Assembly: GCA_022450045.1 (NCBI GenBank)
Contig: JAKURD010000014.1
Location: forward strand, 20,025 to 84,024
DNA from: Gracilimonas sp.
Lineage (GTDB): Bacteria; Bacteroidota; Rhodothermia; Balneolales; Balneolaceae
Direction: 5' to 3'
Length of the DNA stretch: 64,000 nucleotides
The notes under the pieces were generated by a model. The model searched no databases. It was not told the origin of the DNA and was given only the letters and a program-made list of their open reading frames with translations. Below, piece after piece: positions 6,358 to 59,341 of this stretch. The number at the start of each line of letters is the position of its first letter. Within the stretch, counting starts at the first letter, position 1. The position numbers and the translations under genes are program-made.

Positions 6358-7146
6358 TTACTGAAGTTCTTCTAAGATTTCACGGGCACGATTCAGATTC
6401 CACTTATCTATTTCGTTTTTAGGTTCTATTTCAAGAACTTTTTTCAAGATCTGGACTGCTTTTTCATCCTCACCTATTCGTTTATAGTGTCGTCCAAGAT
6501 CGAGTTGGTAACGTATTTTTTCTTCAGGATCTAATTCAATGGCTTTTTTGATATACTCTTCAGCTTTTTCATTACTTGCACCCACGGGTATTCCTTCAGA
6601 AATAAATCTGGCTGCCAATCTTTGTGCTGTTGTAATATTGGCAACCTCACTGTGCCAAACCCCCAGCAGCAGCCAGGCAGGTGCGTATTCAGGTAGCAAT
6701 TCGATTGCTTTATCAGTATGCTTTTTAATTATGTGAGACCTTCTTATCCGCTCTTTGGTATCAGAAATATCAGAGATTCTGCCATTAGCTACGGCATAAA
6801 CAAAATGAGAAAAGCCTTTATCCGGATATTTATTAATAGTTCTTTCAGCATATTTCATAGCCTGCTGGTAATAGTCTTTTTTTTCTTCATTATCCTCAAT
6901 GCGAAAACCGATGCGGGAATATAGCAAGCTGGTGTGCCATAGGGATTTAAAATTAAGAGAATCAGTTTCCAATACTTCTTTGTAATTCCGGAGGGCTTGT
7001 TTTTCATTTCCATTATCAAACTGTTGGTTGGCCAATTGAAGGAGCGAATCAACAGCATTTGTACTTTGAGCTTGCAATGATAGTGTGAACAAAGAACTGA
7101 AGACAAAGAGAAAGCAAAAAGCTCTTTTAAATAAATATGTATTCAT
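6358..7146 (-). CDS. Exported tetratricopeptide-repeat protein
   Basis: 262 residues. Signal peptide at the N-terminus (KRAFCFLFVFSSLFTLSLQAQ), so the protein is exported and is probably periplasmic. Several TPR-like helical pairs follow, for example ANQQFDNGNEKQALRNYKEV, YIKKAIELDPEEKIRYQLD and GRHYKRIGEDEKAVQILKKV. TPR domains bind partner proteins; no partner is indicated. The gene is convergent with glyS, and a MITE-like element lies just upstream, between it and rpmH. Function unknown. Confidence 0.8.
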   Translation of the reverse strand: MNTYLFKRAFCFLFVFSSLFTLSLQAQSTNAVDSLLQLANQQFDNGNEKQALRNYKEVLETDSLNFKSLWHTSLLYSRIGFRIEDNEEKKDYYQQAMKYAERTINKYPDKGFSHFVYAVANGRISDISDTKERIRRSHIIKKHTDKAIELLPEYAPAWLLLGVWHSEVANITTAQRLAARFISEGIPVGASNEKAEEYIKKAIELDPEEKIRYQLDLGRHYKRIGEDEKAVQILKKVLEIEPKNEIDKWNLNRAREILEELQ

Positions 7147-7272
7147 AAAGTGCAGTTGTGTGCATTAAAAAATTAGATGCTTGATTTGCACTTTAGAACG
7201 CTATTAGTGATGGAAAGATTTCGACTGAACATTGCATTATGTGCATTTTTACACGAATGAATAATTTAATGT

Positions 7273-7560
7273 CAATAGAATCCTAAACGTTGAAATACAT
7301 TTTGGCAAAACGATCCTTCAAAAGGATTCCCGCAGATTTCCGCAAAGGATATCGCAGAGTTGCGCTGAATAGCGATGCGTATTGATAAAAGATCATCTGC
7401 GCTCCGGGCGCAACGATTCCCACGAAGTGAAACTCAGCGGGTTAATCGGCGAGCCTCTGCGAGAAAAAAAGGGGATTGATTTTAAACATGTCAACTAATC
7501 CGTCTTTATCTTCGAAAACACAGGTTTTTTTCAATTTTAAAAACGTTTAGGACGCTATTG
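7273..7560. mobile_element. MITE-like element, copy 1 (family R1)
   Basis: A 288-bp non-coding element with ~20-bp terminal inverted repeats. The right end reads AACGTTTAGGACGCTATTG and the left end is its complement with two changes. It is flanked by ATTTAATGT (7264-7272) and ATTTAGTGT (7561-7569), a 9-bp target duplication with one mismatch. A second copy lies inverted at 49484-49746. Copy 1 carries about 22-25 extra bp near 7331-7353, rich in CGCAGA-type motifs. There is no transposase, so it would need a helper element. It occupies most of the space between the TPR gene and rpmH and could affect the rpmH promoter. Confidence 0.82.
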
Positions 7561-7656
7561 ATTTAGTGTAAATAATAGTTCTGTTTTTTCGGAGATTCTC
7601 TTTATATTTAAAGCCTTTTTCGGATGAGAAATTGAACGCATAAAATATCCCGATTC

Positions 7657-7815
7657 ATGAAACGCACGTATCAACCAAGTAATAAGAAGCGCAAGAACAA
7701 ACACGGTTTTCGCGAACGCATGTCTAGCAAAAACGGACGTAGAACTATTGCGAGTCGTCGCAAGAAAGGCCGTCATAAGCTAACCGTTAGTGATGAGAGA
7801 AAAGGAGCAAAGTAA
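7657..7815 (+). CDS. rpmH: 50S ribosomal protein L34
   Basis: 52 residues. Starts [18 protein letters not shown] and continues [20 protein letters not shown], the near-invariant L34 pattern. It is a structural protein of the large subunit. The C-terminal [13 protein letters not shown] tail is the usual extended form in Bacteroidota-type organisms. Its end overlaps the start of rnpA, so the two are likely translationally coupled. Confidence 0.97.
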
Positions 7816-8224
7816 CCTTACGGATTCTCCTGAGCGTAGATTTACGTTATCAAAGTCACATATTTTACGTGGCCGGCGCAATTTTGAGGAACTGTTTTCA
7901 GGTTCCTCAATGCTCAGATCACACAACGTGAACCTTCGTTATGCCACCTATCCCAATGCTGATAAGAAGGCCCTTGTTGGCTTTATAGCCCCTAAAAAGA
8001 TTGGGAGAGCGGTGCAGCGCATCAGAACCAAGCGATTGCTGCGTGAAGCTTACCGGCTTAATCAACACATCATCACCGAATTACCCATAACAGCTGAAAT
8101 AGGATTACACTATGCTTTTATGGCAAAGCGTGCAGGCCTCACCTTCGAAACGGTTCAGCAGGAAGTCATTTCATTGTTGAAAGAACTGCGTAATCGATTG
8201 TTGTCAAAAAATTCACCCTCTTAA
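7790..8224 (+). CDS. rnpA: Ribonuclease P protein component
   Basis: 144 residues. Protein subunit of RNase P, which matures the 5' ends of tRNAs together with the M1 RNA. Recognisable are [21 protein letters not shown] at the start of the domain and the RNR-like motif [19 protein letters not shown]. The open frame begins at GTG 7790, but ATG 7793 is the next codon and equally good. Either way it overlaps rpmH by 23-26 nt. yidC follows 12 nt after the stop. The order rpmH-rnpA-yidC is the conserved bacterial block. Confidence 0.93.
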
Positions 8225-8236
8225 AACGCACTACTT

Positions 8237-10042
8237 TTGGATAAGAATACAGCCACCGGATTTGTTTTAATATTTTTGCTGATGCTGGGATGGTTTTATT
8301 TTACCATGCCTTCCGAAGAAGAATTGGCACAACAACAACAGGAACAAGCTCTCCAGGACAGCCTTGCTCAGATAGAACAAAATCAGCAGGATTCTTTAAA
8401 CCAACTTGATGAAGCTGAGGCTGAAGAACAGGAAAGAAGGGACCCAGTTATAAGTGAAGATGTGGATGAGGTACCTGAAGTAAGAGGGTTGTTTGCAAAC
8501 AGCCCGGTTTCTGAGCAAAAGAAAATTGAGGTAGCTACCCCTCTTTATACCGTCACGTTCACCAATCGAGGTGCAGGGCCGAGTTCTTTTTTATTGAATG
8601 AATATGATACCTGGGATGGCCGCCCGGTTCAGCTTATTGATGATACCACGCGATCGGCTTATAACATCGGTTTCTTATCTACCGAAAATTACAATGTTGA
8701 AACTCAAAATATTTTGTTTCGCCAGGTTACACAGGGGAACTCCATTAATATTTCTTCCGGTGAGCAACGTGAAGTTCGTTATGAGTTGGAGCTTGAGGAT
8801 GGCCGGGAACTTATTATCACGTATTTACTGAATGGTAATAACTACGAAATTGATGCTGATGTTCAATTTGCAGGACTTCAGGATTATGTGGTTGGCGGTG
8901 ATATCGATTTTGGCTGGACCGCCCCTCTAAATTTCACCGAAAAAGATCCTACGCAGGATGCACTTGAAACGGCTGCGTATGTATATGCCGGCGGTGAACT
9001 TGAAAAATTCAAGCTGACTGAACCCGGACGTAACGAAACTACGATCAACGGTAATATTGATTGGGTTGCTACGAAAACGAAATTTTTTACTCAGTTGATC
9101 AAGCCATTATCCCAAACAGATGCTGCGTTGCTTACAGGAGAGGTTACGGGAGCTATTGATAATCAGAATACCGATCACAGATATACATCTTCCATCAGAA
9201 CCAATTTTGATGATCAGGGTGAGGCCTCTTTTCGGCTCTATCTGGGACCGTTAAAATATCGCGAAGTTACCAAGGTCGACGATCATGCCTATGATATGGT
9301 TGATTTGGGTTGGAGCTGGTTACGCTGGTTCTCGGATCCTTTTGTGCGCTGGATGGTGATCCCGTTCTTTGAATTTATGTCCCGATTTACAGCCAACTAT
9401 GGGATCATTATCATTGTGTTCGCCTCTTTGGTGAAATTGGTATTGTCTCCGCTTACTTATAAGAGTTACAAAAGTATGGCCGCAATGGGCGAACTTCAGC
9501 CCCAAATGAAGGAGATACAGGAGAAGTACAAAGACAACCCGCAGAAGCAGCAAAAAGCAACCATGGATCTATACCGTAAGAATAAGGTGAATCCGCTGGG
9601 TGGCTGTTTGCCGAACTTACTACAGTTTCCAATCCTGATTACACTTTGGCGCTATTTCCAGAATTCAATTCAGATCCGCCAGGAAGAATTTTTGTGGGCG
9701 GGTGATTTATCCGCACCGGATTATATACTGAACCTACCATTTGAAATTCCATTTTTAGGTGATCAGATCGCCGGATTTGTATTATTGATGACGGCGGCTA
9801 TGATGGTTCAAAGTAAGCTTACCGGTGGAATGAGTGGTGGGGGCGGAAGTAGCCCTATGGCCGGACAAATGAAAGTACTACAGTACATTTTCCCGGTCAT
9901 GCTGTTGTTCATCTTTAACAACTTTGCTTCCGGACTGAGTTTGTACTACCTCATATTCAACGTGCTTTCCATTATTCAGCAATTCTTCATCAAGCGCAGT
10001 TTGCATGGAGATAAAGACGGAAAAGAAGTAGCTAAAGCTTAG
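8237..10042 (+). CDS. yidC: Membrane protein insertase YidC
   Basis: 601 residues. Inserts and folds inner-membrane proteins, with or without SecYEG. An N-terminal anchor (TGFVLIFLLMLGWFYFTMP) is followed by an acidic Q/E-rich linker, then the large periplasmic beta domain (about residues 90-345). The conserved transmembrane core runs from ANYGIIIIVFASLVKLVLSP, through the cytoplasmic loop KSMAAMGELQPQMKEIQEKY and GGCLPNLLQFPILITLWRYF, to the last helices (VLQYIFPVMLLFIFNN, LSLYYLIFNVLSIIQQ). Start is TTG at 8237; no ATG fits. It follows rnpA closely, as is usual. Full length for the Gram-negative type. Confidence 0.97.
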   Translation: MDKNTATGFVLIFLLMLGWFYFTMPSEEELAQQQQEQALQDSLAQIEQNQQDSLNQLDEAEAEEQERRDPVISEDVDEVPEVRGLFANSPVSEQKKIEVATPLYTVTFTNRGAGPSSFLLNEYDTWDGRPVQLIDDTTRSAYNIGFLSTENYNVETQNILFRQVTQGNSINISSGEQREVRYELELEDGRELIITYLLNGNNYEIDADVQFAGLQDYVVGGDIDFGWTAPLNFTEKDPTQDALETAAYVYAGGELEKFKLTEPGRNETTINGNIDWVATKTKFFTQLIKPLSQTDAALLTGEVTGAIDNQNTDHRYTSSIRTNFDDQGEASFRLYLGPLKYREVTKVDDHAYDMVDLGWSWLRWFSDPFVRWMVIPFFEFMSRFTANYGIIIIVFASLVKLVLSPLTYKSYKSMAAMGELQPQMKEIQEKYKDNPQKQQKATMDLYRKNKVNPLGGCLPNLLQFPILITLWRYFQNSIQIRQEEFLWAGDLSAPDYILNLPFEIPFLGDQIAGFVLLMTAAMMVQSKLTGGMSGGGGSSPMAGQMKVLQYIFPVMLLFIFNNFASGLSLYYLIFNVLSIIQQFFIKRSLHGDKDGKEVAKA

Positions 10043-10054
10043 GTTTTACGATTT

Positions 10055-10092
10055 GATGTTATGTGTTAACTTAACCGTTCACATGTAACATC
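10055..10092. terminator. Hairpin after yidC
   Basis: GATGTTA-TGTG at 10055-10065 pairs with CACA-TG-TAACATC at 10080-10092. It lies just after the yidC stop and 9 nt before the next start, so it probably reduces read-through. Confidence 0.5.
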
Positions 10093-10101
10093 AGGATCAT
10101 T

Positions 10102-11016
10102 TTGCTTAGTAAAGCACTTTTACACTTTCCCCAATTTCGATTTCGGGACGGAGAAAAACGTCTCCGGAATTCTATTCTGAAAAAGACATTTGTCAACCTG
10201 CCCGAGGAAAGGGTGCGCCTGAAACTCATTGACTTTTTTACCAAGGAAGCAGGAATCCCGGGTTCGCGAATTTCCTTTGAAAGTCCGGTTAACCTGGCTG
10301 GGGATAAGTCCAAATCCCGAACCGACATCATTTGCTACGACAAGGATTTTAAGCCGCTGCTTTTGGCGGAATGTAAGGCGCCGGATATTAAGATAGATGA
10401 AAAAGCTGCTATTCAAGTGGCTCGATACAACCAAAAAGTAGGAGCGCCTTTCGTATTGGTAAGCAATGGAATTTTGGATTTTTGGTTTAAAATTGAAGGT
10501 GAACAGATCATTCCGCAAGAAGAGATACCCAAACCTTTCAGCCCAAAGAATGAAATTATTAGGTCACTAACTTATTGGGAAGAGAGAGCCTTTATTGGGC
10601 ATCATTTAAAGCCTGTTGGAAGAGCGTTTGCGAAAACTTCCTGTGCTTCCCTTTTTAGTGATCCGCATCAGCCTGTCAGGTTTCTGAGTTTTGATGGATT
10701 CCCGGAAGAGTTTGCGTTAGGACATTACTATCGCATCTATGGGATAAAAGAGAATGTGAAAATAGGAGTCAGTATAGCAGCCAATCCCTATGGAGGAACA
10801 AGATTGAACGTTGTGTTGAACCAGGGCGGAGCCAATACTGCTTTCTTTACAACTTCCCTGAACTTGATAGCAGAACAGGAAAATATGAATACCGAAATTC
10901 ATTCATCAAAAGGCAGATTAGAAATTGACCTAACCAATGAAACTGGCTTTGATCTCAATAAAAATATCGGGGATATGGTACCGGAATTTCACTGTCTTTT
11001 GCTTAAACATTCCTAA
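10102..11016 (+). CDS. HsdR N-terminal-like nuclease-fold protein
   Basis: 304 residues. Residues ~10-140 match the type I restriction enzyme R N-terminal domain found as a stand-alone protein in many Bacteroidota: RLKLIDFFTKEAG, then SRTDIICYDKDFKPLLLAECKA with the D...ECK signature of PD-(D/E)XK nucleases, and ARYNQKVGAPFVLVSNGILDF. The C-terminal ~150 residues are not recognised. There are no hsdM or hsdS genes here, so it is not a restriction system. A role in DNA metabolism is a guess. Start TTG at 10102 right after a hairpin. Confidence 0.75.
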   Translation: MLSKALLHFPQFRFRDGEKRLRNSILKKTFVNLPEERVRLKLIDFFTKEAGIPGSRISFESPVNLAGDKSKSRTDIICYDKDFKPLLLAECKAPDIKIDEKAAIQVARYNQKVGAPFVLVSNGILDFWFKIEGEQIIPQEEIPKPFSPKNEIIRSLTYWEERAFIGHHLKPVGRAFAKTSCASLFSDPHQPVRFLSFDGFPEEFALGHYYRIYGIKENVKIGVSIAANPYGGTRLNVVLNQGGANTAFFTTSLNLIAEQENMNTEIHSSKGRLEIDLTNETGFDLNKNIGDMVPEFHCLLLKHS

Positions 11017-11097
11017 ACCGTTTGGTCGATATTCATTGGGTATTTCTGTATCCTTCAGGTCGTAAAAATCATTTCAAACCATTTTATTTAAAGAACA

Positions 11098-12435
11098 ATG
11101 ATGCACCAAAAACACCGCGAAAAGTTATTCTCACTATTTGATGACGGACAACAAGGTGCCGTTTTTATTCAGGGTTCAGAAATTTTATACCGCAATGAAA
11201 CGGATTACGAATATCCCTTTCGGCAGGAGTCCAATTTCTGGTATTTGACAGGAGTGAATGAGCCTGAATGTGCATTGATCCTGGATCTGAAGACGGAGGA
11301 ATATCATTTATTCGTTCCCAAAAGAGATGCGCAATTTGCTGTGTGGCACGGCTATGTGAAATCGCAGGATGCATGGCAGGAGCAGTACAATCCGGATCAT
11401 CTGCATTATACCAATGAGATTCTTACGGTGATGAATGAGCTCAATCCGGACAAGGTGTATTGCCTGAATGACCTGGATGCCGAGCTGATAGAAGATCTTG
11501 ATCGCAGCTTTGAAGCGGATATCGAAACCCTGCAAGATGCGCTTACTTACTGCCGTGTTATTAAGACGGATGAAGAACTTGAATACATGCGCAAATCGGC
11601 AAAGGTGAATAATCTTGCCCATACCGAAGTGATGAAAGCGATCAAGCCGGGGATGTATGAATATGAGCTGAAGGCTTTATTTACCAAGATTCAGTATGAA
11701 CACGGCCTGCAACAGGATGCCTATAACGGAATTTTTGCCGGTGGAAAAAACGCTGCTATTCTTCATTATGTGGAAAATACTAGTCAGATAAAAGATGGAG
11801 ACCTGTTTTTACTGGATGCCGGACATGAATATCAAGGTTATGCTTCGGATATCACACGTACTTATCCTGCCAATGGGAAATTTACTGATCTGCAGGCGGG
11901 CGTATATGATGCGGTGTTGAATGCCCTTAACAGTTCCATTGAAAAAGTAGAAACCGGAGCGAAAATGGAAGATTTACATCTTCATGCAGCCCAAACCATC
12001 ATGGAAGGATTGAAAGATGCAGGTGTTGTTAAAGGCTCAGTTGATGATATGATGGAAAACGACATTTTTGCATTATTCTTTCCTCATGGCTTAGGGCACT
12101 TCCTCGGACTGGATACTCATGACGTTGGCGGTTATCCGAAAGGAGTGGAACGTATTGACCGTCCTGGAATTAAGTTTTTGAGAGCTCGCCGCGATTTGCA
12201 GCCTGGAATGGTGGTGACTATAGAACCCGGAGCGTATTTTATTCCGGCACTGTTAATTCCGGCACTTGAAGACGATATTCAATCAAAATTCCTGAATGCG
12301 AAGAAGATCACCAAGATGTTTGAGTTCGGTGGAATTCGTATCGAGGATAATATTGTGGTAACTGAAGAGGGCTATGAAAACCTAACGGATGTACCGAAAG
12401 AACGAGAAAAAGTGGAGAGATTGATCAAAGGTTAA
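11098..12435 (+). CDS. pepP: Xaa-Pro aminopeptidase
   Basis: 445 residues. Cytoplasmic M24B metallopeptidase that releases an N-terminal residue before proline. The N-terminal creatinase-like domain (about residues 1-170) includes FRQESNFWYLTGVNEPECAL. The catalytic pita-bread domain has all five metal ligands: Asp pair in LLDAGHEYQGYASDITRTYP, His in FFPHGLGHFLGLDTHD, Glu in VVTIEPGAYF and Glu in GIRIEDNIVVTEEG. Two ATG codons start the frame; 11098 is the first. Length is typical. Confidence 0.93.
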   Translation: MMHQKHREKLFSLFDDGQQGAVFIQGSEILYRNETDYEYPFRQESNFWYLTGVNEPECALILDLKTEEYHLFVPKRDAQFAVWHGYVKSQDAWQEQYNPDHLHYTNEILTVMNELNPDKVYCLNDLDAELIEDLDRSFEADIETLQDALTYCRVIKTDEELEYMRKSAKVNNLAHTEVMKAIKPGMYEYELKALFTKIQYEHGLQQDAYNGIFAGGKNAAILHYVENTSQIKDGDLFLLDAGHEYQGYASDITRTYPANGKFTDLQAGVYDAVLNALNSSIEKVETGAKMEDLHLHAAQTIMEGLKDAGVVKGSVDDMMENDIFALFFPHGLGHFLGLDTHDVGGYPKGVERIDRPGIKFLRARRDLQPGMVVTIEPGAYFIPALLIPALEDDIQSKFLNAKKITKMFEFGGIRIEDNIVVTEEGYENLTDVPKEREKVERLIKG

Positions 12436-12469
12436 CCGTTATTCGTTGATTCGTTAATGGGAGGGTAAA

Positions 12470-12919
12470 TTGACAAATAAAAAATCGAAAATAGCTACTT
12501 TTGAAGATCTGTTAGTGTGGCAGGTTTCAAGGGATTTGAGACAACGGGTCTCACGCATTTGTGAAGAGTTACCCAAAGAAGAGACTTACAAATTAAAAGA
12601 TCAGATGCTAAGAGCTTCACGTTCGGTAACTGCGAATATTGCTGAAGGATATGGCCGATTCCATTTTCAGGAAAATATTCAATTTTGCCGACAAGCACGA
12701 GGCTCCTTATACGAATTAATTGATCATTTGTCTTGCGGATTTGACGAAGGTTATTTCAAAAAAGCCGAAGTTTCCAAATTAAAGAGGGAAACCATCAGAG
12801 CGATCAAACTTGTCAACGGATATATTGGTTATTTGAACAAGTCGAAGATTAATCATGTTAAAGAACCCGAAATCGATTACACAATTAAGGGTTCAACGAA
12901 TAACGAAATAAACGAATAA
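12470..12919 (+). CDS. Four-helix-bundle protein (23S rRNA intervening-sequence protein family)
   Basis: 149 residues. The pattern FEDLLVWQVSRDLRQRV, LKDQMLRASRSVTANIAEGYG and QFCRQARGSLYELIDHL is that of the S23/four-helix-bundle family. These small proteins form helical bundles and are often inside 23S rRNA insertions or scattered in genomes; function unknown. TTG start at 12470. The gene is bracketed by inverted motifs: GTTATTCGTT upstream (12437-12446) and AACGAATAAC repeated downstream (12897-12920). Such brackets hint at an inserted unit between pepP and ispH. Confidence 0.85.
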   Translation: MTNKKSKIATFEDLLVWQVSRDLRQRVSRICEELPKEETYKLKDQMLRASRSVTANIAEGYGRFHFQENIQFCRQARGSLYELIDHLSCGFDEGYFKKAEVSKLKRETIRAIKLVNGYIGYLNKSKINHVKEPEIDYTIKGSTNNEINE

Positions 12920-53851: not shown

Positions 53852-54658
53852 TTATCCTCCTATCCATCTAAAGTGTGGCCAATATAATTTGGGGTCGTCG
53901 TTTTTAGGGTCCCGTAGCGGATTAGACTGTTCCTCATCGATAAAACTCCAGTTTTTTCGTCTCATTAAACGCTTATACTTATTCAACCAATCTTCACTAG
54001 CAATTCTAACTGTTCGCTCCCTTTCTTCATTGGTAATGGGGTGGGTAACGGTAACCGTTGTATCTTGAATTACAAGATTTTCGACATCTATATCTTTTCC
54101 TGTTCTGTGACTTCTATGTCCCCTTGCTGAATTCCAATTGTTGTTAAGGTCAAATAAACCTCCCCACTTCAGACTTATGTCGTTTAAATACATATCTCCG
54201 CTTGTATTCCATGATGCATTGGAAAAGTCAGTCGCAGCATCTATAAGATTATCTTTGGCAGACTCATTATAAATGTAATGATTGTTTGGGTGGGCACCGT
54301 TTGCACCTGTCAAACTGTAATCCTCTCCTTCGGGAAATTCAATTAATTCGTCTACCATAATAATAATTTTAGCACTATCTTTACCAGATGTCTGTGATGA
54401 AGAGGCCACAATCCATTCTTCCCCGGCTATTTCGGATGAGGTAAACGCAGTGGTAAAAACACCATTTTCATTGGTTACACCCGATATATTTTCCAGGGTT
54501 CCGGTAACACGTTCTCCATTGTGTTCATGTCCGCCGCTGTTGGGCACGGTTTTAACCTGCAGTGAACACGGAAACCCCTTCAACAGGTTCATTTTCTTTT
54601 AGTGCCTGCACGGTAACGGTGGTACTTACATCTCCTCCGGTTCTTTGCGGGAAAGCTC
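53852..54658 (-). pseudogene. MepA-like peptidase, 5' lost and frameshifted (cassette 2, gene 1)
   Basis: The C-terminal ~240 residues read in one frame: PNSGGHEHNGERV, GARGHRSHRTGKDIDVEN (the GHxSHxTGxD zinc motif) and the end LYWPHFRWIGG. Upstream the homologous frame (QRTGGDVSTTVTVQALKENE, then PVEGVSV) is shifted by one base near 54560, and before about 54655 it is replaced by IS30 transposase sequence. So the signal peptide and most of the Ig region are gone. A start at ATG 54592 would give a cytoplasmic fragment without export. Confidence 0.8.
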
Positions 54659-54781
54659 TCGGGAAATAGTTGATTTGTGAACCCCGATAATTTCTGCGAT
54701 TTTAGTTTGTGAGTGTCCTGCATGGAGCAGCGCATTAATCTTATGGCGATCTTGTAGGTCAAGTTGTTTGTATTTTTGCAT
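54626..54781 (-). pseudogene. IS30-family transposase fragment (N-terminal HTH)
   Basis: ATG 54781 gives MQKYKQLDLQDRHKINALLH, AGHSQTKIAEIIGVHKSTIS and REL, the DNA-binding start of IS30 transposases. After about 54655 it reads into cassette gene 1 in another frame and stops at 54626. The catalytic DDE part is missing. Together with the palindrome at 54812 and the sequence to about 54873, which resembles an IS30 end (GTTGCACTTATGACTTG), it is the remnant of one element end. Confidence 0.85.
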
Positions 54782-54811
54782 AGTAACACGAATATAAGCC
54801 GCTTGGCCGAA

Positions 54812-54837
54812 AACCCTGAGGGATATCCCTCAGGGTT
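54812..54837. terminator. 26-bp perfect palindrome in the IS30 remnant
   Basis: AACCCTGAGGGATATCCCTCAGGGTT split as two arms around the centre, with a T run on the + strand (54838-54847). It can terminate transcription entering the peptide gene from the left, or from the IS side. Confidence 0.75.
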
Positions 54838-54875
54838 ATTTTTTTCGTGTTGCACTTATGACTTGAACTCAGGAT

Positions 54876-55061
54876 ATGAAAAAATTTAAAAAAGCCGATC
54901 AAGTTGAATTAAAGCCTCTGAATGAGGACATATATGATGAATTCTCTATCCAGGAGCTTGAGCAACGATTAGAAACAAAACCATGGATATGCGGTGGCAA
55001 TTGCAATGATTTTGATGTTGAAATCCCAGAAGAGCAAATACTGGATATACCTGAACTATAA
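54876..55061 (+). CDS. Putative RiPP precursor peptide
   Basis: 61 residues. Acidic leader-like part (LKPLNEDIYDEFSIQELEQR, then LET) followed by a short core KPWICGGNCNDF and an acidic tail EIPEEQILDIPEL. ELEQRLE resembles leader motifs of class II-type modified peptides. The two Cys spaced by GGN and the Trp are candidates for modification or a disulphide. It is followed by an M50 protease with an RRE-like region and a terpene-type enzyme. Only context supports the precursor role. The start is a few bases from the IS30 end, so its promoter may be unusual. No family name known to me. Confidence 0.6.
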   Translation: MKKFKKADQVELKPLNEDIYDEFSIQELEQRLETKPWICGGNCNDFDVEIPEEQILDIPEL

Positions 55062-55063
55062 TA

Positions 55064-55281
55064 TTTATTTTAAAACAGATAAGGGATAAGAGTCTTAGAA
55101 AATAGCACCTAACTTTTTGATATTAATTTCAAAGTTATCTCTAATTTCTAAACTTGATCTAACTACGGGTAGGGAGATATATGAGTCTTGATATTAAATA
55201 GTTGTTTGTTGCAAATTTAAAGACTCTTATTTCTGGTTTTCTAACTTAAAAGCATAAGTTTTTTAATAGAAGGCTAGTAGA
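55064..55281 (+). promoter_or_regulatory. Intergenic region with Bacteroidota-type promoter
   Basis: TTTG at 55205-55208, a 19-nt spacer, then TATTTCTG (55228-55235) matches the -33/-7 consensus TTTG / TAnnTTTG with one change. A transcript would start near 55242 and reach the M50 gene ATG at 55282. So the three maturation genes may be transcribed separately from the peptide gene. Confidence 0.5.
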
Positions 55282-56490
55282 ATGGTAGACTTGAATGACA
55301 TAAAACTATTAGATGTACAGCCTCTTTCATCTTCGAGCAAGTATCAATTATTTGTAATTAGCTACCAAGACAGACATTTTGAAGTAAGTGAATCAGTAGC
55401 AGCGTTGATTGAAATATTAAAAGTTACAAACTCAGAAGTGGAAGTTGCTCTTGAACTTTCACGAAAAAATGGAATAGAGTATTCACAAGAGGAAATAAAA
55501 AAATTGGTAAACACTTATATTGATCCAATCTTTAGGCCAAAGAGTGAAAAGAAAGATTCTTACATTTGGCTAAAAAAAGAGTTTTTATCAAGTAAGTCTC
55601 TTAGTCCACTCACTCATTATTTTAGCTATCTCTTCAAGCCTGAAGTTGTTATAGCATTTACAGTATGTATTGCTATAGCACAAATTTGTTTTTTTGTATT
55701 TGCTACTAATGGACAGTCCATTACTAGTTCACATAGCATTGAATCATTTTTACTCGGAGGTGGGCTTTTTTTTCTTTCTGTTATATTTCATGAACTTGGC
55801 CATGCATCTGCTTGCAAATATTATGGAATTGAACATGGCCATATTGGTATAGGATTATACCTGCATTTCCCAGTTTTTTATGCTGATGTATCAAATATCT
55901 GGAAGCTAAGAAGAAAACAACGAATCGTAGTGGATTTAGCTGGGATCTATTTTCAATTGCTATTCTTACTTCCAATTATTTTAGTACATTTTATGACCAA
56001 TTTGGATCTTAAATATGTTATTTATGCCATTAATTTATCCTTCCTTTTTGACTTAAATCCCTTTTTTAGATTTGATGGATATTGGGTGTTTACAGATCTT
56101 TTGGGGATTGCCAATCTTAGACAAAGAACCAATGAAGCAATAAGTTATATGATAAAAAAGATGCGAGGTAAAGAAATATTGGAGAAGCCATACCTTTATA
56201 AAATAAATGCTAAAGAAAAGTACATTTTTTTAGGCTACATAATAGTATCAAACTTGTTTTTCGGATATTACATCTTGTATAAAATACCGCTTTTTCTCTA
56301 TCAGTTTGTAAGAACTATACCAAATGATCTTCAATATATTTTTGAGAGTTTTACCAGATTAGATACACCATTTCCCTTCGAATTGTTAGGGCCTGTTTTA
56401 ATACAACTAGGATTTATTTTGTTAATTCTATATATGTTCTTTAAAGTTTTGTCAAGTATATATAATTATACCACAAATAAATTATCATGA
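55282..56490 (+). CDS. M50 family membrane metalloprotease with RRE-like N-terminus
   Basis: 402 residues. The first ~95 residues (FVISYQDRHFEVSESVAALI, then ILK, and later EEIKKLVNTYI) resemble a PqqD-like RiPP recognition element. Then at least six membrane helices with the zinc motif HELGHA in FLSVIFHELGHASACKYYG and the second site DLNPFFRFDGYW (NPFFRxDGYW type). Such M50 proteins occur in peptide-bacteriocin clusters, where they cut or export the peptide. First gene of a tight three-gene operon, overlapping the next start by 4 nt. Confidence 0.8.
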   Translation: MVDLNDIKLLDVQPLSSSSKYQLFVISYQDRHFEVSESVAALIEILKVTNSEVEVALELSRKNGIEYSQEEIKKLVNTYIDPIFRPKSEKKDSYIWLKKEFLSSKSLSPLTHYFSYLFKPEVVIAFTVCIAIAQICFFVFATNGQSITSSHSIESFLLGGGLFFLSVIFHELGHASACKYYGIEHGHIGIGLYLHFPVFYADVSNIWKLRRKQRIVVDLAGIYFQLLFLLPIILVHFMTNLDLKYVIYAINLSFLFDLNPFFRFDGYWVFTDLLGIANLRQRTNEAISYMIKKMRGKEILEKPYLYKINAKEKYIFLGYIIVSNLFFGYYILYKIPLFLYQFVRTIPNDLQYIFESFTRLDTPFPFELLGPVLIQLGFILLILYMFFKVLSSIYNYTTNKLS

Positions 56491-57326
56491 ATAGAAGACT
56501 GGTATTGTTTTTTTTATTGATGTTACCTTTTTCGGCTATCGCTCAAACTGTAAAAGGTAAGGTGTATACTGAATCTACTGTCCAGGATCCTTTGGCTTTT
56601 GTTAACATTGGAATTATTGGAACTACCGTAGGGACAGTTTCTGATGAAGAAGGGTATTTCACTCTACCTTTTAGAAAAGAACATCTTAATAAACAAGTTA
56701 GATTCTCCATCATTGGGTATAAATCTAAAGAGTATAAACTGGACAATTTATTGAACCAGTTTAATGAGATTAAGATGGAAAAAGATACAGTTCAATTAAA
56801 TAAAATAGTTGTAACTGATTTTCGATTAAAGAAAAAAGACAAGGGTACAAAGACTTCCTCTAAAAGAATTGTTACAGGTTGGAACAGATATATTTTAGGT
56901 GGTGAACGCGGAATAAGGATTAAAGTTGGTAGTAAGCCCATATCTGTGAAAAGCCTGCATTTTCACGTAGCTAATAATGGATTTAAAAAGGTGTTATTAA
57001 GATTGCATTTTAGAAATTTCAAAGATGGTGTTCCTTTTCGACATGTAGTTAATTCTGATATTATAATTCCAGTAAATATAAAGTCTGGGTGGGTAAATGT
57101 AGATCTTGAAGAATACGATTTGGTTTTTGAGGAAGATGTTGCAGTTACATTGCAACCTGTGCACAGAACTGGGGAGTGCCTTGAGCAAGAAAATTGTTTT
57201 CATCTTTCTTTAGGCATGTTCAGGATTTTTAGTCCTAATTGGCTTGTTTACAAAATTTCCAGTGAAGCTGATTGGGAAATAAAAAAAATATACAGTCCGG
57301 GAATCTATTTGTCCGTATATGAGTAA
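56487..57326 (+). CDS. Exported CarboxypepD_reg-like domain protein
   Basis: 279 residues. Signal peptide (LVLFFLLMLPFSAIAQ), then a CarboxypepD_reg-like beta domain (VKGKVYTESTVQDPLAFVNI, TVSDEEGYFTLPF). The C-terminal ~170 residues are beta-rich with two Cys (TGECLEQENCFH). No TonB barrel follows, so it is not a receptor. Probably periplasmic or outer-membrane-associated helper of the peptide system. Coupled to its neighbours (ATGA overlap before, 5 nt after). Confidence 0.7.
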   Translation: MNRRLVLFFLLMLPFSAIAQTVKGKVYTESTVQDPLAFVNIGIIGTTVGTVSDEEGYFTLPFRKEHLNKQVRFSIIGYKSKEYKLDNLLNQFNEIKMEKDTVQLNKIVVTDFRLKKKDKGTKTSSKRIVTGWNRYILGGERGIRIKVGSKPISVKSLHFHVANNGFKKVLLRLHFRNFKDGVPFRHVVNSDIIIPVNIKSGWVNVDLEEYDLVFEEDVAVTLQPVHRTGECLEQENCFHLSLGMFRIFSPNWLVYKISSEADWEIKKIYSPGIYLSVYE

Positions 57327-57331
57327 ATTCT

Positions 57332-59341
57332 ATGGAACAACAAATATCTACAAAATATCGAAACTTCTACCGTGAATACATCCAAAAGCTTTCTATTGAT
57401 CATTCAATAAAGAGCCGAATCCTTGATGAAAGAATCTTCTCTGGCGACTATAAATTTTACCTTTTCTATCCTCGTCTTTTTTCCGAAGCTTTTAACATTG
57501 TTGATGACCGAAATCTGAAATTACTCAGCATTTCTGGTTTTCTTTATTATTTATCACTTATCAGCTTGGATAGGATCTATGATTCCAGAGAAGAAGAATT
57601 GAGCCATGGTAATTTGGCAATTATTACAACATGTCAGGAAGAATCAATTAAAATACTCAGTTATCTTTTTGAGCCCGGTTCAGAATTTTGGAAATATTGG
57701 AATAAGAGGAAAAGCAAATATTATAGCGCAATGAGTATGGAAAACAATGGTTTTATATCCTCCGAGTCTCAGTATTTTAAATTAGCGGATTATAAAAGTG
57801 AGTTTGGTAAAGTTGCGATTGACGCACTTCATCTCCTATCCCAAAAAAAATATACCAGCAGATACAAAGATCTTCTTTTAGCTCACAGGCATTTTTCCAT
57901 AGCGAATCAAATTGTGGATGATATTCAAGATATTACACTAGATAGAGAACAAGGCCAGTTTAATTGGGTTTTCAGGCATTTATCATCTTTTCTAGAATCT
58001 AATGACCTAAATTGTAGTAAAATGAGTTCGACGCAGATAAAAAAATACCTCTACTCTTCGAACCTGGCTGTTAATTATTATATCAAAGCGGGTAACTTTT
58101 ATAATAGTGCCCTAAAACATGCGGAAAAGGCTCAAGCCACTTTATTTCACAAGAGTTTAAAGAAATTACACAAAGAAAATGACCACCGCATTAATACTAT
58201 AAATGGATATAATATGATTCTAGAAACAAGGGCAAAGGTAAATAAAAGTAAAATACGTAAACGCGCATCTTTTCTTAAGAAACTTTCGATGGATGAACTT
58301 GACCATTCTCTTCAGGATGGCATAAATTACTTACGCTCGACAATCGACGATACGTACAAGTGGCATGATTTTTTAACGAATGCCGGGCTAAGTACTGGTT
58401 GGGTAACGTCCTATGTGGGATTTCAGTTATCTGAAGCTGGACTAGCAAGTGATTTAGTAAAGGATGTAATTGATAGATTGTTGAGGGAAGAAAATATCAT
58501 ATCCGTTGGTGCTTATAATGAAAGCATGATTCACGATGCAGATTCTTTAAATTTTGCTGTTGCTCTTTCAGGGGCTTTGGATATAGATCAACAACGAATA
58601 TTACTTGATTCTTGGTTTGATTTTCAAGGAAGTGATGGTGGTTGGATGACTTACAACAAGCCTGATGCATTACGAGCACGGCTGGAATTTTCTGCAGATG
58701 AAAATGTTAAGGGTTGGACCGAGTCACATCCTTGTGTTTCTGCAGTAGCCGCGTATATCTTAAACTACATGGGCAAGTATCAGAATCGTTATAAAAAAAC
58801 CATTAAGTATTTGCTTAGCTGTCAAACTGAAGCGGGTTATGTACCCTCCTATTGGTGGACTAACTCAGCATATAGCACTTCTTTCTTTATAATGTCACTT
58901 GCGAAAGGGAACGATCATTCTTCAGAATTAGAAAATGCTAAGAAATGGTTAATTGACCAGCAAAATTCTGATGGAAGCTGGCCTATTTCAAAATATAGTT
59001 TTGAATCCAGTGCTTTTTACACAGCACTGGCTGTAAAGGTATTGATTAAAACCAGTAAGGAAGAATACAATGCCAATATTGTAAAAGGATTGCTCTGGCT
59101 TTTAAATAATCAACTTAAAGATGGTAGTTGGCCAGTAGCACATATACTACGCATTCCCGCAACCGATGTAGTAAATCCAGAACAAGTAAGCCAGTGGAGG
59201 GAAAGTTCATTTGGAGTCAACGCTCTAATCGATGATCATATAGGCAACTTTACAACGGCTACAGTACTCAATACATTTTCTTGTTATTTACGATCTATTG
59301 GTTCTAATATTGAAAGCAAAGATAAAATAGATTATCGCTAA
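57332..59341 (+). CDS. Fused class I isoprenoid-synthase-like and class II terpene-cyclase-like protein
   Basis: 669 residues, no signal. N-terminal half is helical with LDRIYDSREEEL at residue ~79-90 (D80, D84) and ANQIVDDIQDITLDREQGQF with D196-D197-x-x-D200, like the two Asp-rich sites of prenyl/phytoene synthases. The C-terminal half (~330-660) is an alpha/alpha toroid with HDADSLNFAVALSG (D402-A-D404-S405, DxDD-like but last D missing) and QW-type repeats at about 432 (QGSDGGW), 544 (QNSDGSW) and 594 (QLKDGSW). Domain order class I then class II is the reverse of plant bifunctional enzymes. In this cluster it could prenylate or cyclise a prenyl group on the peptide; that is inference. 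Confidence 0.7.
   Translation: MEQQISTKYRNFYREYIQKLSIDHSIKSRILDERIFSGDYKFYLFYPRLFSEAFNIVDDRNLKLLSISGFLYYLSLISLDRIYDSREEELSHGNLAIITTCQEESIKILSYLFEPGSEFWKYWNKRKSKYYSAMSMENNGFISSESQYFKLADYKSEFGKVAIDALHLLSQKKYTSRYKDLLLAHRHFSIANQIVDDIQDITLDREQGQFNWVFRHLSSFLESNDLNCSKMSSTQIKKYLYSSNLAVNYYIKAGNFYNSALKHAEKAQATLFHKSLKKLHKENDHRINTINGYNMILETRAKVNKSKIRKRASFLKKLSMDELDHSLQDGINYLRSTIDDTYKWHDFLTNAGLSTGWVTSYVGFQLSEAGLASDLVKDVIDRLLREENIISVGAYNESMIHDADSLNFAVALSGALDIDQQRILLDSWFDFQGSDGGWMTYNKPDALRARLEFSADENVKGWTESHPCVSAVAAYILNYMGKYQNRYKKTIKYLLSCQTEAGYVPSYWWTNSAYSTSFFIMSLAKGNDHSSELENAKKWLIDQQNSDGSWPISKYSFESSAFYTALAVKVLIKTSKEEYNANIVKGLLWLLNNQLKDGSWPVAHILRIPATDVVNPEQVSQWRESSFGVNALIDDHIGNFTTATVLNTFSCYLRSIGSNIESKDKIDYR

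What the first reader, a model, noticed from the sequence alone, without database searches (positions are those of the whole stretch)
54876..59341. Putative RiPP cluster with an M50 protease and a fused class I/class II terpene-type enzyme
Seen: a 61-residue peptide (ELEQRLE leader-like, WICGGNC core), an M50 protease with an RRE-like N-terminus, an exported CarboxypepD_reg protein, and a 669-residue enzyme with DDIQD (class I) and DADS plus QW repeats (class II), the last three tightly coupled. Known: M50 proteases and RRE domains occur in RiPP clusters; the enzyme motifs belong to isoprenoid chemistry. Inference: the product may be a prenylated or terpenoid-modified peptide. I know of no described system with this set, and it lacks a radical SAM enzyme, LanM or YcaO.
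Basis: partly seen in the sequence, partly recalled or inferred. Interest (0 to 1): 0.88.

Follow-up and report, generated by a model that had tools for sequence, protein, structure and literature searches.

The report
Terpene-decorated peptide gene cluster
A small gene cluster in a relative of the bacterium Balneola looks built to attach a long isoprenoid chain to one tryptophan of a short peptide, fold that chain into rings and then cut the peptide free; enzymes of this kind were reported in 2024, and what looks new is that the ring-forming half is swapped between relatives and that this copy has lost a partner enzyme.

Summary
The 669-aa enzyme is a trans-isoprenyl-synthase-like domain fused to an MstE-like class II terpene cyclase. 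Of 34 related genes in 32 loci, 31 have a small same-strand precursor with the same leader (FxVEELExRxE) within 6 kb and 31 an M50 gene (27 and 27 of 29 without near-copies). Of 40 distinct precursors, 33 carry Trp 3-4 residues after the leader motif. The M50 N-terminus resembles RRE domains (suggestive only). Best reading: the first domain prenylates that Trp, the second cyclises the chain, the M50 protease removes the leader. This architecture is already described (ChrPC, 2024, seen here only through a 2026 review). What looks new: two kinds of cyclase half are exchanged on one prenyltransferase domain (breakpoint near residue 300 against the closest relatives); those relatives carry a radical SAM/SPASM gene beside the precursor, hinting at doubly modified peptides; this genome lacks it, and an IS30-like remnant ends about 2 bp before the precursor's start codon. 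This copy may be silent or make a simpler product. No chemistry was tested.

The parts
54876..55061 (+). RiPP precursor, 61 aa; leader motif FSIQELEQRLE = residues 23-33; predicted modified Trp37; core WICGGNC...
   Evidence: Sequence; local matches of 84.9% (53 aa) and 72.4% (58 aa) beside the same genes in L027/L028; leader pattern and Trp position across 40 distinct precursors; only match in own genome at E<=1
54942..54974 (+). Leader recognition motif FSIQELEQRLE
54984..54986 (+). Trp37, 4th residue after the leader motif, predicted prenylation site
   Evidence: Trp at +3/+4 in 33 of 40 distinct precursors; shuffled cores mean 4.1, maximum 11 in 2000 trials
55282..56490 (+). M50 membrane metalloprotease, predicted leader-removing (perhaps exporting) protease; HELGH at residues 170-174
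55288..55542 (+). Possible RRE domain of the M50 protein (residues 3-87), predicted leader-binding
56487..57326 (+). Exported protein with CarboxypepD_reg-like domain, role unknown
   Evidence: homologues at 62% and 51% in L027/L028
57332..59341 (+). Fused prenyltransferase-cyclase (PC) enzyme, 669 aa
57332..58231 (+). P domain (residues about 1-300): trans-IDS-like fold; D80/D84 (57569-57583) and Q193-x-x-DDxxD-x3-D204 (57908-57943)
58274..59305 (+). C domain (residues 315-658): MstE-like class II terpene cyclase; D402-A-D404-S at 58535-58546
54645..54873 (.). Remnant of an IS30-like element (transposase N-terminus on the - strand, 54626-54781) whose similarity to other copies ends at 54873, 2 bp before the precursor ATG
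   Evidence: 84% identical to a copy elsewhere in the genome that has a 358-aa transposase frame with HTH_38 and rve domains; two short terminal matches end at 54870 and 54873. The name IS30 is recalled
54812..54837 (+). Terminator-like hairpin in the remnant, reading towards the precursor
   Evidence: 1 found; 2.5 expected in shuffles of the region, so no statistical weight; the paired stem is kept in the other copy

Best explanation
A RiPP cluster of the ChrPC kind. The precursor is made with a FxxxELExRxE leader. The N-terminal P domain of the fused enzyme transfers a long prenyl group (C10-C20, most likely geranylgeranyl) from its diphosphate to Trp37; the Asp motifs hold the Mg-diphosphate and Gln193 helps hold the indole. 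The C domain then protonates the end of the peptide-bound chain through the DADS aspartate and cyclises it to a polycyclic terpenoid. The M50 protein binds the leader, probably with an RRE, and cuts it off at or in the membrane. Shown by sequence: the genes, domains, conserved residues and linkage, the insertion-element remnant, and no match for the relatives' radical SAM gene in this genome. Predicted: the folds. Inferred: every chemical step, chain length, cleavage site, export. In the closest relatives a radical SAM/SPASM enzyme probably adds a second modification to the same WxC core; here it is missing, so the product (if made) would be simpler.
For: Fused enzyme with predicted polyprenyl-synthase and MstE folds. 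Catalytic motifs conserved. 31 of 34 PC genes with a same-strand precursor within 6 kb, 31 of 34 with M50; without five near-copies of one cassette 27 of 29 each; five of the six missing items lie on short, end-cut or disrupted contigs, the sixth (L068, no precursor) does not. Trp at +3/+4 in 33 of 40 distinct precursors, within +8 in 37. Gln upstream of the second Asp motif, named in the review as the Trp-recognition residue of trans-IDS-like peptide prenyltransferases, in 26 of 27. The review describes the same architecture and reaction for ChrPC. Purifying selection between one Allomuricauda and one Flagellimonas copy: dN/dS 0.009 precursor (47 codons), 0.115 P, 0.162 C, 0.103 M50.
Confidence: 0.82

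Rival explanations
1. The fused enzyme makes a free (non-peptide) terpenoid: the first domain makes a prenyl diphosphate, the second cyclises it, and the peptide and M50 genes are a separate RiPP or signalling unit.
For: Drimenyl diphosphate synthases and squalene-hopene cyclases share the C-domain fold; the first domain's only notable sequence matches are polyprenyl synthases, weakly.
Against: The peptide and M50 stay with the enzyme in Balneolaceae, flavobacteria, Cytophagales and others, also where the flanks differ; Gln before the second Asp motif fits indole binding; a fixed Trp in the peptide; P-only versions still sit with a precursor and M50 (L036, L070).
Confidence: 0.07
2. The window's cluster is a decaying remnant: the insertion-element event removed the radical SAM gene and promoter, and the precursor is no longer expressed or properly matured.
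For: The element's similarity ends 2 bp from the ATG, with a terminator-like hairpin pointing at the precursor; no radical SAM homologue in the genome, while the same search finds it in 3 of 3 relatives, and in the two closest it ends 43 and 46 bp before the precursor; the core keeps the WIC pattern of the rSAM-bearing relatives EAC52, MES10 and G051; no promoter-like site was found between 54500 and 55700 on the + strand (a sigma-70 scan that may not fit this phylum).
Against: All four reading frames are intact; 29 of 34 relatives have no such radical SAM gene within 6 kb either, though several lie on cut contigs. The genome is 96.8% complete in 71 contigs, so the gene's absence is not proven.
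Confidence: 0.35
3. Only prenylation occurs; the C domain is structural or acts elsewhere, not on the prenyl chain.
For: P-only relatives exist (2 of 27: L036, L070).
Against: The acidic DxD(S/D) motif is kept in all 24 C domains that I labelled by type, and well-supported branches force changes between the two cyclase kinds, as if the cyclase activity mattered.
Confidence: 0.07

Closest known systems
ChrPC-type RiPP maturases (Hubrich et al. 2024, Chem 10:3224, PMC11484575; not held, known to me here only as described in review PMC13290415)
   Same: Trans-IDS-like P domain fused to a cyclase C domain; internal Trp of a ribosomal peptide; C10-C20 prenyl donors, then cyclisation
   Different: ChrPC's sequence, organism, C-domain type and neighbours were not seen here; whether M50, radical SAM partners or C-domain exchange are described there is unknown to me
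NctPC (same paper, via the review)
   Same: MstE-like C domain fused to a peptide Trp prenyltransferase, geranylgeranyl donor
   Different: Its P domain is an ABBA-barrel fold, not the all-helical trans-IDS-like fold predicted here
ComQ / PalQ tryptophan prenyltransferases
   Same: Trans-IDS-like, Trp prenylation of a ribosomal peptide (PMC10853753, first part of section 2; review section 2.4)
   Different: No cyclase domain is described for them there; PalQ sits with an NHLP-type precursor and needs a terminal Trp
MstE (Scytonema monodomain class II terpene cyclase)
   Same: C-domain fold and DADT/DADS motif
   Different: Stand-alone; solved with prenylated dihydroxybenzoates, not peptides
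Epipeptide (EpeP/YydH/LiaK) and daptide M50 proteases
   Same: M50 membrane protease; EpeP is thought to cut and export its RiPP (PMC10885120, passages); nearest NCBIfam models
   Different: Scores far below the family cut-offs; a possible RRE at the N-terminus; different peptides

Membership tests
ChrPC-type prenyltransferase-cyclase RiPP | Trans-IDS-like P domain fused to a class II cyclase-type C domain | tested here: met
   By predicted structure
ChrPC-type prenyltransferase-cyclase RiPP | Gln just upstream of the second Asp motif | tested here: met
   Q193 in NQIVDDIQD; present in 26 of 27 enzymes compared
ChrPC-type prenyltransferase-cyclase RiPP | RiPP-like precursor with an internal Trp next to the enzyme gene | tested here: met
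   Trp37; 37 of 40 distinct precursors have Trp within 8 residues of the leader motif
ChrPC-type prenyltransferase-cyclase RiPP | Sequence relatedness to ChrPC itself | not testable with these tools
   Primary paper not held; sequence not available
ChrPC-type prenyltransferase-cyclase RiPP | C10-C20 prenyl transfer to Trp followed by cyclisation | not testable with these tools
   Needs biochemistry
NctPC (ABBA-type) | ABBA-barrel P domain | tested here: not met
Daptide M50 protease NF041824 | Score over the curated cut-off of 300 bits | tested here: not met
   97 bits
YydH/LiaK epipeptide protease NF058609 | Score over the curated cut-off of 225 bits | tested here: not met
   66.5 bits
RRE-containing RiPP protein (M50 N-terminus) | PqqD-like fold, three strands then three helices | tested here: inconclusive
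Radical SAM RiPP system | Radical SAM/SPASM gene in the cluster | tested here: not met
   No match in the own genome with two queries, the second with 3 of 3 relatives positive; none in the window below E 0.09. Present in L027, L028, L031, L034, L035

The most novel reading that the evidence does not exclude
A modular RiPP platform in Bacteroidota: one Trp-prenyltransferase domain repeatedly exchanges two kinds of terpene cyclase half (MstE-like DxDS and squalene-hopene-like DxDD), so nature re-decorates near-identical peptides with different polycyclic terpenoids; in Balneolaceae and in at least one other family a radical SAM/SPASM enzyme acts on the same WxC core, giving peptides with both a cyclised terpenoid on Trp and a radical-made link or change nearby, perhaps at Cys.
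Probability: 0.45. Interest if true: 0.72.

Novelty: new variant of a known kind. Interest (0 to 1): 0.52.

Why it matters
To my knowledge, ribosomal peptides carrying cyclised terpenoids have been known only since the 2024 paper. This set gives 34 related enzymes (29 without near-copies) with matched precursors, and a natural domain-swap pair (window against Balneola sp. EAC52: related P domain, 85% identical precursor match, different cyclase kind) that lets one ask directly what the cyclase half decides. If the cyclase halves are exchangeable, they are ready-made parts for building terpenoid peptides. The radical SAM neighbours suggest doubly modified products, which I did not find reported in what I could read.

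Tried and rejected
Rejected: Cys as the conserved modification site (17 of 44 listed precursors have no Cys after the leader motif). Rejected: the idea that the set is undescribed. Led nowhere: a single-protein scan of genome contigs (32 stretches, no relative confirmed); Pfam for the P domain (only polyprenyl_synt, below its cut-off in each protein where it appears); a family for the precursors (window peptide; three relatives' peptides, one sub-cutoff azolemycin-type hit for L027's). dN/dS between window and L027 is saturated in the three genes computed, so nothing is said about current selection on the window's copy. The script stopped on an N in L027 before its last comparison; the G+C figures come. 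One search (five phrases) found no paper; some searches were seen as listings, and only the papers named in the report were opened. Not examined further: weak matches in G246, G270, G392, G180, G396 and G242; in G396 the P domain is split over two frames. L032 (cyclase only) and L037 (a 372-aa cyclase-like protein) were fetched but not counted among the 34. Seven of the 34 PC genes (L030, L050, L054, L058, L059, L060, L061: near-copies, cut by contig ends, or disrupted) were left out of the 27-row tree. The fold search for the PC model is filled mostly by the C domain; the P domain is seen through rows such as 33, 35 and 49. In L068 no precursor was found with the leader pattern. The label changes of the tree are only weakly clustered against shuffles (MstE 6 changes, as low in 18 of 500; DxDD 7, as low in 189 of 500), and deep nodes are unsupported, so the number of exchanges is a lower bound from starred branches only.
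Full report
What is there. Four genes read in one direction: a 61-aa peptide (54876-55061), an M50 membrane metalloprotease (55282-56490), an exported protein with a CarboxypepD_reg-like domain (56487-57326) and a 669-aa enzyme (57332-59341). The stretch has lower G+C (33.2%) than any of 120 overlapping tiles of the same length in the window (mean 42.7%, sd 3.0), which fits a foreign island.

Relatives. A search of 395 genomes of the phylum with the enzyme gave matches in 15, the own genome included; I fetched eleven stretches from ten of the others. A profile search of 244 genomes of the class gave 6 with a match, the own included. Named hosts include Balneola sp. EAC52, a Balneolaceae MAG (MES10), Flavobacterium, Allomuricauda, Tenacibaculum, Aquimarina, Fulvivirga, Chryseobacterium defluvii, Polaribacter and Candidatus Symbiothrix. 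In all, 34 P-domain genes in 32 loci were examined. 31 of 34 have a same-strand peptide with the leader pattern within 6 kb; 31 of 34 have an M50 homologue within 6 kb. Six of the 34 (L030, L054, L056, L059, L060, L061) are near-copies of one cassette (96-99.9% DNA identity); keeping one of them gives 27 of 29 for each. Misses: L058 and L061 (peptide) and L029 and L050 (M50) lie on short or end-cut contigs, L054 (M50) has a truncated enzyme gene, and L068 is a true miss for the peptide by this pattern. The leader pattern occurs 44 times in the window and 33 loci scanned, and never in 20 shuffles made from two-base blocks.

The peptide. Of 40 distinct leader-plus-core sequences, Trp stands at position 3 or 4 after the leader motif in 33 and within 8 in 37; shuffling the cores gives a mean of 4.1 and a maximum of 11 of 40 in 2000 trials. 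The peptides were chosen by leader, not by Trp. Exceptions: L031 and L063 (Trp at +20) and L036 (no Trp in a Cys-rich core). Between one Allomuricauda and one Flagellimonas copy dN/dS is 0.009 for the precursor (47 codons) and 0.10-0.16 for the other genes: a product held constant rather than a diversifying one.

Known system. A 2026 review (PMC13290415; passages, section 2.4 and parts 1-2 of its reference list read) describes the trans-IDS-like peptide prenyltransferases ComQ, PalQ and ChrPC. ChrPC has a P domain that puts C10-C20 groups on an internal Trp and a C domain that cyclises them; NctPC pairs an ABBA-type P domain with an MstE-like C domain. A Gln just before the second Asp motif is proposed there as the key to Trp recognition; it is present in 26 of 27 enzymes here (L031 has Cys). 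The PalQ paper (PMC10853753) was read in its abstract and the first part of section 2. The primary ChrPC paper (Hubrich et al. [quoted passage not shown] The listings showed no other account of the combination in the held library.

What looks new: exchange of the cyclase half. C domains fall in two groups with no overlap in pairwise bit scores (within-group minimum 60.8, between-group maximum 55.5): 15 MstE-like with DxDS and 9 with DxDD (labels assigned by me from BLAST and motif; one further enzyme is split and two are P-only). Pfam finds the squalene-hopene cyclase family in the window's enzyme and in all six DxDD enzymes scanned, but not in the one other MstE-like enzyme scanned, L030. On a P-domain tree of 27 rows the window's enzyme is sister to Balneola EAC52 (97/93) and then MES10 (100/100), both DxDD, while the window is MstE-like; well-supported branches force at least 3 changes for the MstE label (16 rows, the split one counted in) and 4 for the DxDD label (several long branches, deeper nodes unsupported). 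Identity between the window and EAC52 enzymes is 40-80% per 30 residues up to residue 300 and 0-40% after it, whereas EAC52 and MES10 keep 33-73% before and 37-80% after it, bar the last block of 17%. DNA similarity to EAC52 also stops at 58236. Tenacibaculum (L047) and Flavobacterium foetidum (L049) carry both kinds side by side.

What looks new: a radical SAM partner, missing here. In EAC52, MES10, G051 and G385 a radical SAM/SPASM gene lies directly upstream of the precursor; in G057 another lies next to the M50, followed by a cytochrome P450. Five of 34 have such a gene within 6 kb. The nearest NCBIfam models are Cys-rich-peptide and ranthipeptide maturases, all far below cut-off, so a thioether is only a guess. 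The WIC core is shared by the window, EAC52, MES10 and G051. In the window the DNA similarity to EAC52 starts at 54875, one base before the ATG; upstream is the remnant of an IS30-like element, 84% identical to a copy elsewhere in the genome with a 358-aa transposase frame, the similarity ending at 54873. No homologue of the radical SAM gene was found in the genome with either of two queries; the second finds it in 3 of 3 relatives tested (genome 96.8% complete). In EAC52 and MES10 the gene ends 43 and 46 bp before the precursor, so the precursor probably shared its promoter.

Mobility. A stretch of 5.8 kb that holds the whole set is 99.5-99.6% identical in three Allomuricauda species, with no megablast similarity in the flanks (L056 against L059 and L060).

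Mechanism and confidence. I hold at 0.82 that this is a cluster for a Trp-prenylated, terpene-cyclised peptide with leader removal by the M50 protease. The chain length, the linkage and the cleavage site are inferred. Whether this particular copy still works is open (0.35 for decay, which can be true together with the main reading).

Noticed in passing
L056/L059/L060: about 7005-12824: A 5.8-kb cassette (precursor, exported protein, PC enzyme, M50, second CarbopepD_reg_2 protein) is 99.5-99.6% identical in three Allomuricauda species with different flanks: recent horizontal transfer.
   Followed up: partly
L055/L030 (contig PAAX01000017.1): A contig titled as an Ignavibacteriae MAG is 99.9% identical over 11.7 kb to Allomuricauda aurea, so it is probably mis-binned.
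   Followed up: partly
L036:1-6439: P domain without cyclase, with Cys-rich precursors that have no Trp in the core (LSCYCAINLCGGYCC...), beside a protein with CarbopepD_reg and TonB-plug domains and an M50: a possible non-Trp substrate.
   Followed up: no
L070:8641-10993: P domain without cyclase; the precursor has Trp at +3 and a long Gly/His/Asp-rich tail: prenylation without cyclisation is likely.
   Followed up: no
L031:4108-10410: Most divergent member: Gln before the second Asp motif replaced by Cys, Trp near the peptide's C-terminus, plus radical SAM and cytochrome P450 genes.
   Followed up: partly
L065:7202-10515: In a Candidatus Symbiothrix MAG the cluster is followed by a HlyD-family protein and an ABC transporter whose best NCBIfam match is TIGR01193, peptide cleavage/export (514.3 bits, just under its cut-off of 523.85): a likely export route.
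   Followed up: partly
window:59393-59867 (- strand): Two overlapping out-of-frame ORFs just downstream of the cluster may be one broken hexapeptide-repeat gene: the second has Hexapep (E 8e-10), the first has no Pfam hit.
   Followed up: partly
window:53852-54592 (- strand): This ORF starts close to the insertion-element remnant and may have been truncated by the same event; only a sub-cutoff Peptidase_M74 hit.
   Followed up: no
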